Notes under the pieces: generated by a model
The model's input: only the letters and a program-made list of their open reading frames with translations
Told to the model about the DNA's origin: nothing
Database searches by the model: none
Shown: positions 1,419 to 29,839 of the stretch, piece by piece
Numbering within the stretch: position 1 is the stretch's first letter
Layout of the letters: each line of letters starts with the position of its first letter
Assembly (NCBI GenBank): GCA_020053735.1
Contig: JAGVMP010000019.1
Location: forward strand, 186,001-250,000
Direction of reading: 5' to 3'
Length of the DNA: 64,000 bases
Source: Pseudomonadota bacterium
GTDB lineage: Bacteria; Pseudomonadota; Gammaproteobacteria; Burkholderiales; Methylophilaceae
Position numbers and translations under genes: made by a program

Positions 1419-2056
1419 CAAATCATACTAAGCATTAGCGATATGGCGCTGGTGGTTACCAGAGCAATTGCGACATAATCTGTAAAATTAAAGCTTGGCA
1501 CTACGAACGTAATACTGACACTTTCATTCGCTTGGTCAGCTTTAATATCCGCCATATTTTTTAATTGGTTGATAAAATTTTGCTTATTCAACGCTTCAGT
1601 TTGCAATTCCACATAGTGTAAAGTCAGCCAGAGGCGCGCCGCAAACCGCTCTACTTTCAAGCCTAAATGTTTAAGGGGCGAAAATATAAAATAGAAGCCA
1701 GAAATTAATTGTTGGCGCGTATTGCAAGCCAAGATTAAGCTCAAACTTGCCAGCATGAGCATAATTCTTAACAATTGCGTCACACCTGCTGTAATGCCTT
1801 CGTAAGTTGGTCCAAACGAAAATGGCCATGCTGCCACATGCTCACCTGGTGTGTTAAACACAAAGATAATGAGCATTACTAAAAAAAACCATTTGAAGCG
1901 CAAAGTCGCACGTATAAAACCATCTACTTTGTGAATTAACATTATGACCAACAGTATTGTTAGTAAAGCAATTAATACACTTAAATTCAAAAAGTTAATC
2001 GATATTGCTAGCATAAAAAAAACCAGCAATTGTGTCATGACATTAATTTTAAACAT
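1418..2056 (-). CDS. EcfT/CbiQ-like transmembrane protein
   Basis: A 212-residue integral membrane protein with about five hydrophobic segments, most of them in the first 125 residues and one at the C-terminus. The middle (TRQQLISGFYFIFSPLKHLG, then ERFAARLWLTLHYVE) resembles the coupling region of CbiQ/EcfT, the transmembrane subunit of energy-coupling-factor vitamin and metal transporters. No ATPase (EcfA) or substrate-binding (EcfS) gene is adjacent, so either the partners lie elsewhere or the protein has another role. It is coupled to truA by a TGATG overlap. A start six codons later (MTQLL) is possible; neither has a clear ribosome site. The family call is by pattern only. Confidence 0.6.
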   Translation of the reverse strand: MFKINVMTQLLVFFMLAISINFLNLSVLIALLTILLVIMLIHKVDGFIRATLRFKWFFLVMLIIFVFNTPGEHVAAWPFSFGPTYEGITAGVTQLLRIMLMLASLSLILACNTRQQLISGFYFIFSPLKHLGLKVERFAARLWLTLHYVELQTEALNKQNFINQLKNMADIKADQANESVSITFVVPSFNFTDYVAIALVTTSAISLMLSMI

Positions 2057-2101
2057 TCGAATATTTTATGCGTAATTGACCAACGTTGCCTACTTATCAA
2101 T

Positions 2102-2129
2102 AAAAAAGCCAGGCATCGCCCGGCTTTTT
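2102..2129 (-). terminator. Rho-independent terminator downstream of fimV
   Basis: A GC-rich stem (GCCAGGC / GCCCGGC around a 3-base loop, one mismatch) is flanked by A6 and T5. It starts 13 bases after the fimV stop. Because it has A and T tracts on both sides it could act in either direction, but no plus-strand gene ends here. Confidence 0.85.
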
Positions 2130-2141
2130 AACAAATACGCA

Positions 2142-5066
2142 TTATGTAATTTGCGCCAACAGTGCCTCTGCGCGCTTACGCTGGCCAGCACCGCCCTCTT
2201 TCATCACTTCATCTAACAGTTCTTTGGCACCTTCTTTATCATCCATTTCAATATAGGCTGCCACTAGGTCTAGCTTCGTTTCTACCTCAATGGGCTCAAC
2301 ATCAGAAATGCTTAACTCAGCCGGTTCTTCAGTAATTATGTCAGCTACAGCCGTGTTTGTGCCATCGTTCAACTCTAAATCAATGGTATTTAAATCAAAT
2401 GAGTTAAGCTCTGGCGCGTCATCATCCACAAAATTAGCTGCTTCTGGCGAGATGGTTTCAACGTTAAAATTAAAGTCGCTATCGGCCCCAAACTCTGCTG
2501 TGGTTGAGTCTTCCACCTGCTCCGTTATTGGCGTATCTGTTTGCAAAAAGTCAAACGATTCAGCACTTGCATCATTATCAGCATTTGCTTCATTAAACGC
2601 CGCCAAATCATCTACTTTGTCACTAGTGTCCAAGCTAATGGTATCCATATCGCTACTTAGTCCGCCAGCAGCTAAACCACTCAGATCTAACACGTTGTCA
2701 GCAACAACCTCGTCCGCATCTGCCAAGGCATCTGGCATAAATTTCGGCGCATCAAATGTGGGCATATCCAGTGCTGGCATAGTGTTGCCAAAGCTCGCTT
2801 CGGTTGTACTCTCTACGACCTCTTCATTGACGTCGGGTGCTTTTGCATTAAACTCACCAAAACTACCCATGTCAAAGTCCAAAGCATCGTTAGTGATAGG
2901 AGTGACTTCTGGCGCGGACTCAACTTTCGCTTCTGTATCAAACTGTGGCAGCTCTAAAGCAGCTTCATCGTTAGTTCCCGCCTCCGCAGCGAGCGAACTG
3001 TCAGGTGCAGTGTTATCAGCCGCAAAATTTTGCGTTAAAGATTCATTATCGAACGAGAAGTCTAAATCTTTTTCTGCTGCCAAAGGTGTGTTGGCAAAAT
3101 CACTCGCATCCAAGTTTCCACCTTTGCCTGTTGGCGCGCTATTGGCTTGGTATAGGGGGTTGTTTGGTTCTAGCTTAATACCAATTTCTGCCACTTTTGC
3201 CCACATTGGGTCTTCTGCGCCTAGCGAAGTGTAAAGCTCACCCGCGATAGTTTCAAACGCTGATAAATTTTTGCTTGCAGCATACATTTCTAACAGCTTT
3301 AAGTGCAACTCATGACGTTTCGGCTCTTTTGAAATCGCGTCTTTTAAAATTTCTTCTGCCTGCGCATCGCGGCCATACGCCATGTAAACTTCCGCTTCAG
3401 CAATTGGGTCTACGTCATTGGTGTCTATCATGCCGCCATTAGCACTTTGTGAGAAGTCGGTAAGGAACGAGGTATCGCCAGTATCCACACTGGCGCTAGC
3501 GGTGTTACCAAATACCGTGTTCGCTTTTAAGCCGCCAGAAGTCATGATGCCCTGTTCAAAGTCGGCTAGATTTTTTTCACGTTTCCTACGTAAATATAAC
3601 CATCCGCCACCTAACAAGGCTAACAAGCCACCAGCTGGTGCCAACAAACTTAAGTTCAAACCATCCAAGATGCTCGCAAAAAAACCAGACTCTCCAACTG
3701 GTGCAATTTCTGCTGGTGTAATCACTGGTTTAGGTTTACTTTCTACAGGCGCAACAGTTTCAGCTTGTGCTGGTTCAACAGGCTTTACTTCTTCTGCTGG
3801 TTTTATAGCTTCAACTGGCGGCACTACAACCGCTACTGGAACCTCTGCAGGCTTAGCTGCCTCGGCAGCAGCTTGATTTTGAATATCGGCCATTGCACCA
3901 TTTTTCATCGCCAACAGTTTTTGCATATCTGCGATTTGTTTTTCTAAATCAGCTGTTCTATCTTGCGCTTCTTTAACACTTTTTTCGCGTGCAGTCGCTT
4001 CCTCCTGCAAGGCAGTAATTCTTGCCTGTAGTGACTGTATATCTTGTGCGCTCTTTGTAGCCGCAGCTTCTCCGGCAGAAAGCTTCACCACATCTTTTGG
4101 GCCTGTTGAGGCCGCTTCAGATTTGTCTTCAGCACTCTTAATTTTACCGCCTGCCGATTGCGTGTTAGCCTCAGAGTCAGTTGGTGCCGCATCCGCGACG
4201 ATACCCGCTAATTTATTACGGTAAGCGTTCCAATTAGCAGCTTGTACTTTAATTTCACCAGCGGCTTCACGGCGTGAAATAGAATTTAAGGTGTCTTGTG
4301 ATGGCTGGCGTAGAATTTGCCCCACTTTAAGACGATTCATATTGCCTTGAAAAGCGTCAGGGTTCGTTTGGTATAAACCCACCAACATTTGCTCAAGACT
4401 TATGCCTTCTTGACTCATATTTTGAGCAATTTTTGCCAGTGTGTCACCACGCTGGGTCGTGTATTCTTCGCCGGCGGCTTCACCAGTAACTTCAGTTGGC
4501 GCTTGTTTAATTTTTTTGCTAGATTTATTTGATTTTACCGTAGCTTCTGAAGGCATCACATCAACTGGCACATTGTCATCTGCCATTTGATCTTTTTTGT
4601 TTTTGCTAAATGATTTCACCATTGGCACTTGCGCTGTTTGTGCACTCGGGTCGGTCTCACCGGTATAGCCAGGAGGATCTAACAAAACAGTATATTCACG
4701 CAGCAACCTGCCAGACGACCAATCCACTTGGATGAGCATGTCTAAAAATGGCTCGCTTATGGGCTGGGCAGATTGAAGCTTTAAGATGGGCGCACCGGCA
4801 GCGTTTTTTGTAACATCAACTTTAATGGTGTTGTGAGAAGCAGGTTTTTCTATGCCTTGAATGGTGTAGGCTTCTTCTGAAGCAATTGCAGCGGAAATAC
4901 TACTTAATTCTTCGGGAGTAACGGACAATAACTCAATGTCGGCTTTCAGCGGTTCGCCCAAGCCAGACATCACATTGAGCTTGCCTAGGCCAGCGGCAAA
5001 AACCGAAATTGGTACTAGCGCCATGCATAAGGCAACGGTTATTCGCTTTAATTTTGAGTTATGCAC
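2142..5066 (-). CDS. fimV: FimV-family pilus assembly / polarity protein
   Basis: A large inner-membrane protein (974 residues) that in relatives organises type IV pilus secretin assembly and cell-pole functions. Signal peptide at about residues 1-25; conserved FimV N-terminal domain to about 135; LysM peptidoglycan-binding motif at about 202-255; predicted coiled coil at about 338-390; Pro/Ala/Glu-rich linker; one transmembrane segment at about 472-492 followed by RRKREK. A long acidic cytoplasmic region follows, then a short C-terminal TPR-like FimV domain (LDLVAAYIEMDDKEGAKELL). Gene position between asd and truA is the usual one for betaproteobacterial fimV. Long open frames on the opposite strand are compositional shadows. 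Confidence 0.93.
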   Translation of the reverse strand: MHNSKLKRITVALCMALVPISVFAAGLGKLNVMSGLGEPLKADIELLSVTPEELSSISAAIASEEAYTIQGIEKPASHNTIKVDVTKNAAGAPILKLQSAQPISEPFLDMLIQVDWSSGRLLREYTVLLDPPGYTGETDPSAQTAQVPMVKSFSKNKKDQMADDNVPVDVMPSEATVKSNKSSKKIKQAPTEVTGEAAGEEYTTQRGDTLAKIAQNMSQEGISLEQMLVGLYQTNPDAFQGNMNRLKVGQILRQPSQDTLNSISRREAAGEIKVQAANWNAYRNKLAGIVADAAPTDSEANTQSAGGKIKSAEDKSEAASTGPKDVVKLSAGEAAATKSAQDIQSLQARITALQEEATAREKSVKEAQDRTADLEKQIADMQKLLAMKNGAMADIQNQAAAEAAKPAEVPVAVVVPPVEAIKPAEEVKPVEPAQAETVAPVESKPKPVITPAEIAPVGESGFFASILDGLNLSLLAPAGGLLALLGGGWLYLRRKREKNLADFEQGIMTSGGLKANTVFGNTASASVDTGDTSFLTDFSQSANGGMIDTNDVDPIAEAEVYMAYGRDAQAEEILKDAISKEPKRHELHLKLLEMYAASKNLSAFETIAGELYTSLGAEDPMWAKVAEIGIKLEPNNPLYQANSAPTGKGGNLDASDFANTPLAAEKDLDFSFDNESLTQNFAADNTAPDSSLAAEAGTNDEAALELPQFDTEAKVESAPEVTPITNDALDFDMGSFGEFNAKAPDVNEEVVESTTEASFGNTMPALDMPTFDAPKFMPDALADADEVVADNVLDLSGLAAGGLSSDMDTISLDTSDKVDDLAAFNEANADNDASAESFDFLQTDTPITEQVEDSTTAEFGADSDFNFNVETISPEAANFVDDDAPELNSFDLNTIDLELNDGTNTAVADIITEEPAELSISDVEPIEVETKLDLVAAYIEMDDKEGAKELLDEVMKEGGAGQRKRAEALLAQIT

Positions 5067-25433: not shown

Positions 25434-26421
25434 TCAAAGCACATCTAAGGGGCTGCTCACCCCACGCCCGCCCTTATTCAGCACGTGCGTGTAAATCATG
25501 GTTGTTGATACATCTGAATGCCCTAATAATTCTTGAACGGTGCGAATATCATAACCACCTTCAAGCAAATGCGTAGCAAAACTGTGGCGCAAAGTATGTG
25601 GCGTAGCGTGTTTGGTAATGCCTGCATCCATTACTGCTTGGCGAACGGCACGTTGAATAGCTTGATCTTGTACATGGTGACGACGCGTATCGCCAGAACG
25701 CGGGTCTACCGACAACTTACCCGATGGAAAAACATACTGCCAAGCCCAATCGATGCCAGCCGAAGGATATTTTTTATCTAGAGCCATTGGCATATACACC
25801 CGCCCAAAACCATTTTCCAAATCGGTAGCGTGCAAATTTTTCACTTTGTCTAAATGGGTTTTTAAAGGCGTTATTAAGCTTAAAGGCAGCATGGTAATGC
25901 GGTCTTTATAGCCTTTACCATCCCTAATTAAAATCTCTTTACGCGCAAAATCAATATCTTTAACCCGCAGGCGCAGCACCTCTAAAATACGCATGCCTGT
26001 GCCATAAAGCAAACTCACAATTAAATGATGCGTACCTGCTAACTGCACCAATATTTTAGCCACCTCATCTTGCGTCAGCACCACAGGCAAGCGTTTGGAG
26101 GTTTTAGCTTGCTCCCTCATCCAACCAAGGCAAAGCCGTACCCAGCACCTCTTTGTATAAAAACAACAACGCACTTTTGGCTTGATTTTGCGTGCTTGCG
26201 GCCACATTGCCTTGCACCGCCAAGTAAGTTAAAAACTGCTCTACCTGCACCGCGCCCAAATCTTTAGGGTGTTGCTTGTCAAAATGCAAAATATATCGTT
26301 TAATCCAATCTGTATAAGCCTGCTCTGTGCGAATACTGTAATGTTTTAAGCGAATTTTGCCGCGCACCTGATCTAACAGCTTTGGTGTGTTTGCATTTGG
26401 CTCTGTTTTTGACGTATTCAT
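25434..26421 (-). pseudogene. intI: Integron integrase IntI, frameshifted
   Basis: N-terminal part 26421-26104 reads SAM-like core-binding residues (YSIRTEQAYTDWIKRYILHF) up to PWLDEGAS and a stop. The catalytic part continues in another frame ([14 protein letters not shown]) to 25434. Removing one C from the CCC at 26114-26116 restores ...[15 protein letters not shown] and a 328-residue protein, normal for IntI. The IntI-specific patch ([20 protein letters not shown]) and the catalytic Arg ([10 protein letters not shown]), [19 protein letters not shown] residues are present. The integron-type identity is therefore clear, and the reading frame is broken unless there is a sequencing error or ribosomal slippage. 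Confidence 0.93.
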
Positions 26422-26568: not shown

Positions 26569-27051
26569 ATGACACACGACCTTATTTTTTTACTCGGATT
26601 TGTCACGCTTGGCGCCTTGGTTTTATTAGGCAGCCGATACCTGGACTCATATGCCTACAGCAAGCTACTGGCCGTAGTTATCATCTTGGCCATGGTAGTC
26701 ATGGTCTGGTTTCACGCTATCGCAATCAGAGTGGAGGGCGACAGTCAAGTCCATTTTATTGTGCTGGCGATCGCGCAGTTTTGGGTACTCGCACTTAGCT
26801 TTAAACTCTGGTTCTCCTTAAACTACCCACGCTTCAACCGCGCTCTGCGTGTATCGGTGCATGTGCTGTCTCATGCCTCACTGGCAGTTTCAGTGTTTGC
26901 AGGCTATTGGCTTAAGACTGCACATCCTGTGATCGTCTTTCTGCTCTATCCCCTGTCGAGCCTGTCAGTTGCCCTAATTGCTGAGAGCATCGAAGAGGCG
27001 GCGGAGCGGCGTGCAGCCAAGGCAACTTCGACATCCGAGGAAAGCTTCTAA
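26569..27051 (+). CDS. Cassette 1: four-helix membrane protein, unknown
   Basis: 160 residues from the ATG at 26569 (a TTG two codons earlier is less likely). Four hydrophobic segments are visible (FLLGFVTLGALVLLG, LLAVVIILAMVVMVWFHAI, QFWVLALSFKLW, HPVIVFLLYPLSSLSVALI) and the tail is charged and Ala/Glu-rich. There is no obvious ribosome site, which is common for cassette genes. Composition is more GC-rich than its surroundings, suggesting outside origin. Family not recognised. Expression would depend on the Pc just upstream. Confidence 0.75.
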   Translation: MTHDLIFLLGFVTLGALVLLGSRYLDSYAYSKLLAVVIILAMVVMVWFHAIAIRVEGDSQVHFIVLAIAQFWVLALSFKLWFSLNYPRFNRALRVSVHVLSHASLAVSVFAGYWLKTAHPVIVFLLYPLSSLSVALIAESIEEAAERRAAKATSTSEESF

Positions 27052-27104
27052 CAATTCACTCAAGCCGACGCCCCTTTGGGCGCGGCTTAATTCGGGCGTT
27101 AGGG
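27046..27104 (+). repeat. attC 1
   Basis: 59 bp, from TTCTAAC to GTTAGGG. The arms TCAAGCCGACGCCC and GGGCGCGGCTTAA pair across a small loop. The layout closely resembles the classical 60-bp attC of aadA-type resistance cassettes, unlike the other attC sites of this array. The gene's stop codon lies within the first bases of the site. Confidence 0.9.
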
Positions 27105-27344: not shown

Positions 27345-27378
27345 GCCCTAACCCGTCGTTCAAGCGGGACTGTGGACT
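27345..27378 (+). repeat. attC 2, left half
   Basis: GCCCTAACCCGTCGTTCAAG followed by CGGGACTG..., the 5' arm of an attC. It breaks off at the left end of the IS3-family element; the matching 3' arm is at 28626-28652. Confidence 0.75.
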
Positions 27379-27426
27379 TGCCCTAAAAAAGTAGACACAT
27401 CACTCTAACTTTTGAGGAGATGTGGC

Positions 27427-27798
27427 ATGGCAAGAACGATCAAACGGGCATACGCTCGCTATGCAGAAACATTTAAAGCGGAGGCGGTCAGATTAGCCTC
27501 TCAACCTGGCATATTGGTGCAGGATGTTGCGCAGTCTCTAGACATCCACCCCTTTATGCTGTCACGATGGAAGAAACAATGTCGTGAGGGCATCATTATG
27601 GTTAACCCTGAATCGAATCCTGCACCTGAGTTGGTCAGTGAAGCTGAGCTATTACGCTTGCGTGAGCTGGAGAAAGCCTACGCCCAGCTTAAGCTGGAGC
27701 ATGACCTTTTAAAAAAAGCCATCAAATTCACTTCCGATGCAAAACGGACATCTTCCGTTTCATTGCCCAAAATTGCCAAGATTTCCCGGTCCAAATGA
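27427..27798 (+). CDS. IS3-family transposase OrfA
   Basis: 123 residues from the ATG at 27427, preceded by GAGGAG. It has a helix-turn-helix DNA-binding domain (AEAVRLASQPGILVQDVAQS, LDIHPFMLSRWKKQ) and a leucine-zipper-like segment (LRLRELEKAYAQLKLEHDLL) as in IS3/IS911 OrfA. Ends by overlapping OrfB by four bases (ATGA). Confidence 0.93.
   Translation: MARTIKRAYARYAETFKAEAVRLASQPGILVQDVAQSLDIHPFMLSRWKKQCREGIIMVNPESNPAPELVSEAELLRLRELEKAYAQLKLEHDLLKKAIKFTSDAKRTSSVSLPKIAKISRSK
27711..27718 (+). other. Programmed -1 frameshift site (A7G) in IS3 orfA
   Basis: A run of seven A then G. A -1 slip here enters the OrfB frame, which stays open with KSHQIHFRCKTDIFRFIAQN then CQDFPVQMMCEQYQVSRSGF, normal OrfB N-terminal sequence. 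The fused OrfAB is expected to be the transposase, as in other IS3 elements. Confidence 0.75.
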
Positions 27799-28601
27799 TG
27801 TGTGAGCAATACCAGGTGTCGCGCAGTGGGTTTTATGCATGGCAGCGACGGCCAGCCTCTTTGCGCACGCAAGCTGATACTGCACTGTGTGAACATGTAC
27901 GTGAAGTCCATCAGTTCAGTCATGAAGCTTATGGCAGCCCACGTATCCATGCGGCATTGAAGCAACAAGGCATTGCATGTGGACGTCATCGCATTGCGAG
28001 GCTCATGCGTACCATGGGCATTGCAGGACGCGCTAGTCGCTTGTATTGGTCTAATGCGGGCAACCATGCGTTCTTTCAGCGGCACGGCAATGAGAAGCTT
28101 GGCATGGATGAACCGTGTACCGTGAATAAGCTTTGGGTGGGGGATGTGACGTTTATCAAGACGGGCAATGGTTGGCATTACCTTGCGGTGGTGATGGATA
28201 TGTTCTCCCGTCGTATTATTGGCTGGGCACTGGCCAATCACCGTAAGGCAAGCTTAACCTGTGAGGCGCTCAAGATGGCCATCAGTGCAAGGAAGCCAGA
28301 TGCCGGTTTATGGTTTCATTCTGACCGTGGCATTGAGTATGCTGCACTTGAATATCAGGCATTATTAATGCAATATGGCATCAAACCAAGTATGAACCGT
28401 CCTAGACAGTGTACGGATAATGCACATATGGAGTCATTCTTCCATTCATTCAAAAGTGAATGGATACATGGTTTCCGATTTAAGGGAGGGGACGATTTGA
28501 AAGTGGCGATTAAGCAATACATTGAAGACTTTTATAATCCTGTACGTTTGCATTCTGGTATCGGCTATCAATCACCGATGGCGCTGGAAGCTGCAGGTTA
28601 A
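27795..28601 (+). CDS. IS3-family transposase OrfB (DDE integrase domain)
   Basis: 268 residues. HTH-like start (YQVSRSGFYAWQRRP), then the rve integrase core with the DDE triad: Asp in KLWVGDVTFIK, Asp in WFHSDRGIEY, Glu in TDNAHMESFFHSFKSE. Typical C-terminal ending (DFYNPVRLHSGIGYQSPMAL). No internal stop or gap. Probably translated mainly as an OrfAB fusion. Confidence 0.95.
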   Translation: MMCEQYQVSRSGFYAWQRRPASLRTQADTALCEHVREVHQFSHEAYGSPRIHAALKQQGIACGRHRIARLMRTMGIAGRASRLYWSNAGNHAFFQRHGNEKLGMDEPCTVNKLWVGDVTFIKTGNGWHYLAVVMDMFSRRIIGWALANHRKASLTCEALKMAISARKPDAGLWFHSDRGIEYAALEYQALLMQYGIKPSMNRPRQCTDNAHMESFFHSFKSEWIHGFRFKGGDDLKVAIKQYIEDFYNPVRLHSGIGYQSPMALEAAG

Positions 28602-28625
28602 ATGTGTGTCCACTTTTTACGGGCA

Positions 28626-28652
28626 AGATCACCCTTATGTCAAACGTTAGGG
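28626..28652 (+). repeat. attC 2, right half
   Basis: Begins directly after the IS right end with AGATCACCCTTATGTCAAAC and finishes with GTTAGGG, the attC 3' arm and core. Joined to 27345-27378 it gives a 61-bp attC similar to attC 3. Confidence 0.75.
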
Positions 28653-28659
28653 CATCAAA

Positions 28660-29199: not shown

Positions 29200-29259
29200 G
29201 CCCAACCCATCCATCAAGCGGGACGCGCTAAAGCGCACCCCTTATGTCACACGTTAGGC
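29200..29259 (+). repeat. attC 3
   Basis: 60 bp from GCCCAAC to GTTAGGC, with GCGGGACGCGCT / AGCGCACCCCTT arms. It begins two bases after the stop of the preceding gene. Sequence is close to attC 2 and attC 5, so these cassettes probably come from related integrons. Confidence 0.92.
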
Positions 29260-29311: not shown

Positions 29312-29575
29312 GTGATTAATTTTGAATTTGACGAAGCTAAAAGTCAGGCAAACCTTCTTAAGCATGGCATCAATTTTGTTGATGCTCAAGATTTGTGGAA
29401 CGACCCCAGTCTATTGGAAATTCCAGCAAAAACAGAGGATGAGCCACGATACCTGATGATAGGACTGATTAACGAGAAACACTGGTCGGCCGTTATCACC
29501 TACAGAGGCGCGGTTATTAGACTTATTTCTGTTCGTCGCTCTCGTACCGAGGAGGTTGCACTATATGAAAGCTAA
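29312..29575 (+). CDS. brnT: BrnT-family toxin
   Basis: 87 residues, GTG start. Characteristic BrnT pattern FEFDEAKSQANLLKHGINF, then DDAQ-like and RYLMIGL; C-terminal RLISVRRSRTEEVALYE. BrnT proteins have a RelE-like ribonuclease fold and inhibit translation; BrnA neutralises them. The gene has its own promoter and is followed by brnA with a 10-base overlap, toxin first, as usual in this family. One cassette encodes the entire module. Confidence 0.88.
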   Translation: MINFEFDEAKSQANLLKHGINFVDAQDLWNDPSLLEIPAKTEDEPRYLMIGLINEKHWSAVITYRGAVIRLISVRRSRTEEVALYES

Positions 29576-29789
29576 AGCGTTTGAACAACAGTTTGATGAG
29601 GCTATTGACATCACCACTTCGCTAGACTTATCAAAAGCGAAACGTGTGTTGCAAGAACAAAGACGTGTGAATGTTGATTTTCCAACCTGGATGATTGAAT
29701 CACTAGATCGAGAAGCTGGGAAACTTGGTGTAACAAGACAATCCGTTATTAAAGTTTGGCTCGCGGAGCGCCTTGAAAAAATCGCCTAA
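29565..29789 (+). CDS. brnA: BrnA-family antitoxin
   Basis: 74 residues from the ATG at 29565, chosen because GAGGAGG lies 9 bases upstream; the earlier TTG frame start would abut that site. C-terminal ribbon-helix-helix sequence (VNVDFPTWMIESLDREAGKL, GVTRQSVIKVWLAERL) binds DNA and toxin. Ends at the beginning of attC 4, the normal cassette layout. Confidence 0.87.
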   Translation: MKAKAFEQQFDEAIDITTSLDLSKAKRVLQEQRRVNVDFPTWMIESLDREAGKLGVTRQSVIKVWLAERLEKIA

Positions 29790-29839
29790 CCCATCAACCC
29801 AGCCGACCTTACAGCGTAGGCTGATTTCAAACGTTAGGC
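29784..29839 (+). repeat. attC 4
   Basis: 56 bp from GCCTAAC to GTTAGGC, arms AGCCGACCTTAC / GTAGGCTGATTTC. It differs from attC 2/3/5 in the arms, although the left outer part (CCTAACCCATCAA) resembles the stub at 30740. The brnA stop TAA overlaps it. Confidence 0.9.

What the first reader, a model, noticed from the sequence alone, without database searches (positions are those of the whole stretch)
27345..28652. IS3-family element inserted in the variable loop of an attC
The 5' arm and core of one attC end at the IS left end and its 3' arm starts at the right end; together they give a 61-bp attC. No target duplication is seen, so insertion may have been followed by deletion, or the element may prefer attC hairpins. 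IS families that target attC are known (IS1111-attC), but an IS3 element doing so would be notable.
Basis: partly seen in the sequence, partly recalled or inferred. Interest (0 to 1): 0.6.

Follow-up and report, generated by a model that had tools for sequence, protein, structure and literature searches.

The report
IS3 transposons that target integron attC
This transposon belongs to a group of IS3-family insertion sequences that repeatedly land at a set spot inside integron attC sites, the DNA sites that let bacteria swap gene cassettes, a habit we found reported only for unrelated mobile elements.

Summary
A 1259-bp IS3-family element (27373-28631) lies between an attC 5' half (27345-27372) and a 3' half (28632-28653): 50 bp in all, not 61, with no target duplication. 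The halves probably come from two different attC sites: their facing triplets mismatch at two positions, as in 1 of 30 intact family attCs against 50% of random re-pairings.

That the IS targets attC is supported by other copies. The nearest (93% aa) sits in another attC, same point and orientation, with a 3-bp duplication. A left-end model without attC sequence found 24 intact-tip left ends in 187 Methylophilaceae genomes; 13 abut an attC 5' half (chance 0.08% each). Diverged relatives in other Gammaproteobacteria behave alike: both attC cores flank 22 of 30 (this copy included), versus 1 of 14 other IS3 elements; stricter tests were weaker.

In the window's clade the insertion lies 23-29 nt from the attC edge whatever the spacer length (14 measured), so the landmark seems to be the R''-L'' half, not the loop. 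In open-access literature I found attC targeting for IS1111 elements and REP targeting for IS3 elements, not this combination.

The parts
27373..28631 (+). IS3-family insertion sequence, 1259 bp, only match in this genome
27373..27400 (+). left terminal inverted repeat
   Evidence: 22 of 28 bases match the right end
28604..28631 (-). right terminal inverted repeat
27427..27798 (+). OrfA (HTH_Tnp_1, PF01527)
27795..28601 (+). OrfB, DDE transposase (rve, HTH_21; NF033516 IS3); the -1 frame is open from 27705
   Evidence: D117, D177, E213 are invariant among 14 relatives; calling them the DDE triad is recalled knowledge
27711..27717 (+). A7 run: likely -1 frameshift site giving OrfAB (inferred)
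27345..27372 (+). attC 5' half (R''-L''), joined to the IS left end
   Evidence: edit distance 2 to the family consensus; none of 89792 null positions is closer than 6
28632..28653 (+). attC 3' half (L'-R'), joined to the IS right end; probably from another attC
25434..26421 (-). integron integrase gene split over two overlapping reading frames (25434-26207 and 26104-26421)
   Evidence: TIGR02249 matches both
27047..27104 (+). attC 1 of the array, uninterrupted, of a different sequence type
   Evidence: read by eye
29200..29259 (+). attC 3 of the array, uninterrupted
29784..29839 (+). attC 4 of the array, uninterrupted

Best explanation
The element belongs to a lineage of IS3-family insertion sequences whose transposase (OrfAB) chooses integron attC sites as target. 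In the window's clade it inserts, as a rule, 0-2 nt after the GGGAC-like end of the R''-L'' half, about 26 nt inside the attC edge, in one orientation, and (where seen cleanly) duplicates 3 bp. This splits the attC and should stop the integrase from moving the cassette (inferred). In the window copy a later event, most simply an IS-adjacent deletion reaching into another attC, removed the duplication, the spacer and probably the cassettes between, leaving mismatched halves. Shown: position, orientation, recurrence, clade pattern, mismatched halves. Inferred: that the transposase itself is the selector, the loss of cassette mobility, and the deletion route. Not known: whether double-stranded sequence or the folded single strand is recognised.
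For: Second copy L002/L031 in another attC with CTG duplication and complementary halves. 13 of 24 intact-tip left ends in Methylophilaceae lie within edit distance 7 of the attC 5' half; null 0.079% of 89792 positions, so about 0.02 expected; these 13 are 10-12 independent events, since L065/L066 are orthologous and L047/L049 and L050/L052 share remnant and downstream DNA. All 13 are closer to the 5' half than to the reversed 3' half, so one orientation. Both attC cores beside 22 of 30 related elements (window and G128 copy included), 1 of 14 controls, 466 of 5148 random positions in the same loci; Fisher 4e-5 against the controls. Tree: attC on one or both sides in 22 of 25 rows of the window's clade (support 96), 10 of 10 of a second clade (95), 0 of 15 of the control clade (98) (labels by eye, and for the control L099 the IS ends were not located). 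Insertion distance: 5' arm 23-29 nt, SD 1.4; 3' arm 21-82, SD 22.3; 14 of the 20 located members measured, cores picked by eye; Levene 1e-6.
Against: 11 of 24 left ends are not within distance 7: three at 8-9, three at 10, five at 11-14. The left-end model was trained on 10 copies, 9 of them attC-flanked and first found with a query that carried 28 nt of attC. Of four strong right-end matches one, G054, has no clear attC. Only 6 of 19 attC-flanked copies with canonical TG...CA ends show an exact 3-bp duplication (6 more match at 2 of 3 positions), against 7 of 14 controls. A strict complementarity test passed only 4 of 25 related sites (0 of 14 controls, 62 of 6601 random positions), and a palindrome score reached p<0.05 for 12 of 25 (0 of 14 controls). 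Three rows of the window's clade and L078 show no attC. A scan for neighbouring attCs found none in 6 of 16 regions around related copies.
Confidence: 0.88

Rival explanations
1. Random insertion into dispensable cassette-array DNA: arrays tolerate insertions and the attC position is chance.
For: Arrays hold much non-essential DNA (recalled); some left ends lie outside attC.
Against: The same position and orientation recur in at least 10 separate attCs of one family and at 23-29 nt in the 14 elements measured; random positions in the same loci pass the core test in 466 of 5148.
Confidence: 0.04
2. The attC 5' half is part of the mobile element (it travels with the left end) rather than part of the target.
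For: In Methylophilaceae the 26 nt next to the left end are conserved in many copies.
Against: The half varies as intact host attCs vary, G128 has attC on both sides with the duplication inside it, and several left ends carry no attC.
Confidence: 0.03
3. Hairpin-loop targeting: the transposase recognises the folded top of attC, as might be expected from REP-targeting IS3 elements.
For: attCs fold; the second clade inserts at variable places in the spacer, some near the apex (L084, L077).
Against: Over 23 sites the insertion is not more apical than average (p 0.21); in the window's clade the distance from the R'' edge is set while the other arm varies from 21 to 82 nt.
Confidence: 0.2
4. Window copy only: the halves are one attC whose spacer was trimmed by a small deletion next to the right end.
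For: GCCCTAAC and GTTAGGGC are fully complementary; 1 of 30 intact attCs also has a two-base mismatch at the diagnostic triplet.
Against: Ratio of about 15 for different sites; in arrays the outer part of R' comes from the next cassette (recalled), so core complementarity says little.
Confidence: 0.2

Closest known systems
IS1111-attC group (IS110/IS1111 family; Tetu & Holmes 2008, Post & Hall 2009, not read; known through passages and reference lists of PMC11187229, PMC12444791, PMC11089894, PMC11616780)
   Same: Insertion sequences that specifically target attC sites of gene cassettes.
   Different: DEDD transposase with a seekRNA from a non-coding region (PMC11187229, abstract start and passages); the present element has an rve (DDE) transposase, OrfA/OrfB, terminal inverted repeats and a 3-bp duplication in its nearest copy.
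IS1397, ISKpn1, ISPsy8 (IS3 family; PMC1525189, passages)
   Same: IS3-family elements with strong preference for a repeated palindromic DNA target; that paper says experiments suggest that the transposases decide the target of IS1397 and ISKpn1.
   Different: They target REP/palindromic units, not attC; kinship of their transposases with this clade was not tested.
Group IIC introns associated with integrons (PMC7923331, search listing only; that they insert at attC is recalled)
   Same: Mobile elements at attC.
   Different: Retroelement ribozymes, not transposons.

Membership tests
IS3 family | OrfA (HTH) and OrfB (rve integrase core) in overlapping frames | tested here: met
   (OrfB: NF033516, 286 bits against a cut-off of 160)
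IS3 family | Terminal inverted repeats, TG...CA ends | tested here: met
IS3 family | Short target duplication (3-4 bp) | tested here: inconclusive
   absent in the window (CTG/CCC); CTG in the 93% identical copy
IS3 family | -1 frameshift making OrfAB | not testable with these tools
   A7 run and open -1 frame from 27705 fit
IS1111-attC group | DEDD IS110/IS1111 transposase | tested here: not met
   Pfam and NCBIfam give rve and IS3-type matches, no IS110/IS1111
IS1111-attC group | Insertion at a specific attC position | tested here: met
   works alike, but not a member
REP-targeting IS3 elements (IS1397 type) | Target is a REP/palindromic unit | tested here: not met
   targets carry attC halves and cores; no REP search was made
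IS3 subgroup (IS2, IS3, IS51, IS150, IS407) | Position in the ISfinder scheme | not testable with these tools

The most novel reading that the evidence does not exclude
Two related IS3-family lineages use attC as their home site: a protein-only DDE transposase reads the R''-L'' half (window's clade, set position) or the spacer (second clade), possibly on the folded bottom strand that integron integrase also uses, so that these elements live off integrons and lock or trim cassette arrays, leaving decayed left ends at attC halves across Methylophilaceae.
Probability: 0.35. Interest if true: 0.75.

Novelty: new variant of a known kind. Interest (0 to 1): 0.6.

Why it matters
In what I searched, attC targeting is reported for IS1111 elements, whose target is chosen with a seekRNA, and for group IIC introns; an IS3 lineage with a DDE transposase doing the same would be a convergent case. 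It gives a compact system to learn how a DDE transposase picks a site at near-nucleotide precision, and a second way in which cassette arrays are frozen or trimmed. A survey found 23% of phyllosphere cassette-array transposases to be IS3 family but named only the IS1111 group as attC-targeting (PMC11089894, passages).

Tried and rejected
Loop or apex preference (folding of 23 empty sites): not supported. A strict two-core complementarity test and palindrome scores separated the groups less well site by site; the half-site core test and the family consensus were then used, so the choice of test came after seeing the first ones. Plasmids by DNA: no match. Plasmids by protein (each stopped at 5000 records and 15-25 rows shown): among the rows listed I recognised two clade members, the Tenderia plasmid and pKAZ2; 11 other listed records were fetched and all 11 fell in the control clade. 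Viral contigs: none. Rows dropped: L042 (contig end) and L086 (same OrfB as L084) from the tree; six tip-less left ends from the count of 24; L081, L082, L114, L117, L131, L120, L121 and L099 from the core test because an end was missing or not located. A mismatch count was wrong through a greedy pattern and was replaced. An idea that short left-end remnants stop at a common point near base 40 was dropped: much shorter ones would not have been detected. Pairs L047/L049 and L050/L052 share the IS remnant and downstream DNA but differ upstream; L051/L063 share downstream DNA; I could not explain this and do not build on it.

Full report
The element. The window lies in a 2.44-Mb genome (G000). 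I take it for a Methylophilaceae genome because a genome of its family, G128, has a contig of the same length and IS as NZ_JABFRA010000074.1, Methylotenera sp.. From 27373 to 28631 there is a complete IS3-family element: OrfA with an HTH_Tnp_1 domain, OrfB with rve and HTH_21 domains and a match to NF033516 (IS3 family transposase) above its cut-off, TG...CA ends and imperfect inverted repeats (22 of 28). An A7 run at 27711-27717 with an open -1 frame suggests the usual OrfAB frameshift (inferred). It is the only match in the genome.

Its flanks. On the left 27345-27372 is an attC 5' half, on the right 28632-28653 an attC 3' half; together 50 bp. Upstream lie attC 1 (27047-27104, by eye) and a split integron integrase gene (25434-26421, minus strand; TIGR02249 matches both parts); downstream lie attC 3 (29200-29259) and attC 4 (29784-29839) with cassettes, one of them a BrnT-CopG toxin-antitoxin pair. 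So the integron context is real.

Are the halves one attC? In 30 intact attCs read from Methylophilaceae loci, the triplet before CAAG in the 5' half and the triplet before TCAAACG in the 3' half are complementary in 27, one-off in 2, two-off in 1. The window pair is two-off; re-paired halves are two-off in 50%. The spacer and the duplication are also missing. The best reading is that the right half belongs to another attC and that the DNA between was lost. The ratio is about 15:1, not proof.

Does the IS choose attC? The nearest copy, G128 (L002 and L031 are the same place; 93% aa), lies in an attC of another integron, at the same point and in the same orientation, with a 3-bp CTG duplication and matching halves. 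To look without attC in the query I built a sequence-only model from IS left ends and searched 187 family genomes: 30 matches in 21 genomes. The model is not wholly unbiased: 9 of its 10 seeds are attC-flanked and came from a query that held 28 nt of attC. 24 matches keep the end tip (model start 1-3; the other 6 were dropped). Of these 24, 13 have the attC 5' half within edit distance 7 directly before the tip (0.079% of 89792 window positions do), 16 within 9 (4.6% do), 11 do not reach 7. All 13 are closer to the 5' half than to the reversed 3' half. L065 and L066 are one orthologous insertion, and L047/L049 and L050/L052 share remnant and downstream DNA, so the 13 stand for 10-12 events. 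Most of these 13 are remnants of the left end: OrfB was found at E<=1e-60 in only 4 of 187 genomes, two of them (G000, G128) with this IS. A right-end model gave 7 genomes of 187, four strong: the window, G128, G186 (an attC-like 3' half with spacer follows) and G054 (no clear attC).

Wider relatives. A search of 369 genomes of the class with OrfB gave 13 genomes at E<=1e-65, own included; a profile of 14 OrfBs was then run on 20, 4, 3, 85, 398 and 340 genomes (3, 2, 1, 10, 4 and 10 with a match at E<=1e-95; samples overlap). Identity to the window's OrfB is 41-52% for the attC-flanked relatives measured. Both ends could be located in 30 (window and G128 copy included) and flanks were tested for both attC cores (R'' RYYYAAC and R' GTTRRRY, at most one mismatch each): 22 of 30, against 1 of 14 control IS3 elements and 466 of 5148 random positions in the same loci (real attCs not masked); Fisher p 4.2e-5 against the controls. 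Harsher tests were less clear: 4 of 25 against 0 of 14 and 62 of 6601 random positions; 12 of 25 against 0 of 14 at p<0.05, Mann-Whitney 5e-6. A tree of 51 OrfB rows (quick method) puts 22 attC-flanked of 25 in the window's clade (SH-aLRT 96), 10 of 10 in a second clade (95), 0 of 15 in a control clade (98), and L078 without attC. Labels were mine, by eye; eight rows show attC on one side only, four of these at contig ends (L072, L082, L114, L117); the ends of control L099 were not located. Named hosts are Alcanivorax nanhaiticus, an Alcanivoracaceae and a Spongiibacteraceae MAG, Candidatus Tenderia electrophaga (plasmid CP013100.1; G428 has a copy at the same place and two more elsewhere) and the plasmid pKAZ2. 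A generic attC scan of 16 regions of up to 20 kb around related copies found at least one intact attC-like site in 10 (for example 6 in G603, 5 in G616, 4 in G595; shuffled mean 0-1 per region) and none in 6 (L151, L152, L155, L157, L164, L165).

Where in attC? In the window's clade the distance from the R'' core to the insertion is 23-29 nt (mean 25.9, SD 1.4; 14 of 20 located members measured, cores picked by eye) while the other arm ranges from 21 to 82 (Levene 1e-6); the bases before the junction read GGGAC-like plus 0-2 nt in most. The second clade is variable (5' arm 31-72, n 9). Folding of 23 empty sites of both clades shows no preference for the apex (p 0.21). I conclude that the window's clade is positioned by the R''-L'' half. 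Whether it reads duplex sequence or the folded strand is open. Exact 3-bp duplications are present in 6 of 19 attC-flanked copies with canonical ends and near ones (2 of 3) in 6 more, against 7 of 14 exact in the controls, which leaves room for later mutation, rearrangement or an unusual target form.

Comparison. What it works like: IS1111-attC elements (attC targeting) and IS1397/ISKpn1/ISPsy8 (IS3 elements with palindromic targets; PMC1525189, passages). Membership: an IS3-family element; not IS1111 (rve transposase). My literature searches over the open-access library showed no report of IS3 elements targeting attC in the titles, abstract starts and passages that I saw. I saw passages of PMC12444791, PMC11187229, PMC1382264, PMC1525189, PMC11089894, PMC11616780 and PMC10872708, and only listings of the rest. 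PMC1382264 mentions IS3-family transposase genes near the last cassette of two Vibrio arrays, without attC targeting. Tetu & Holmes 2008 is not held. PMC11089894 reports 23% IS3 among transposases of phyllosphere cassette arrays but names IS1111 for attC targeting. Subscription journals and ISfinder were not searched, so prior notice cannot be excluded.

Verdict.

Noticed in passing
window 25434-26421 (-): The integron integrase gene is split over two overlapping reading frames, so it is probably inactive (or a sequencing error).
   Followed up: partly
L047/L049, L050/L052, L051/L063: Left-end remnants whose downstream chromosome is shared between two genomes while the upstream DNA (in the first two pairs including the attC half) differs; the join to the IS end is at the same place in each of the first two pairs. 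Unexplained; IS-driven deletions into other attCs are one idea.
   Followed up: partly
L041 (G037), flanks of the IS around locus 1501-2292 (-): A different IS3 element sits with a GAC duplication in a palindrome-like GGGGTCAGACTCC sequence.
   Followed up: no
window 29312-29789: Cassette with a BrnT toxin and CopG-type antitoxin pair.
   Followed up: no
L088 (pKAZ2, KR827391.1): A clade member lies in an attC-like site of an IncC conjugative plasmid, with an ACC duplication.
   Followed up: partly
L014 and L070 (both G170): A 172-bp stretch 96.5% alike lies downstream of two different left-end remnants.
   Followed up: no
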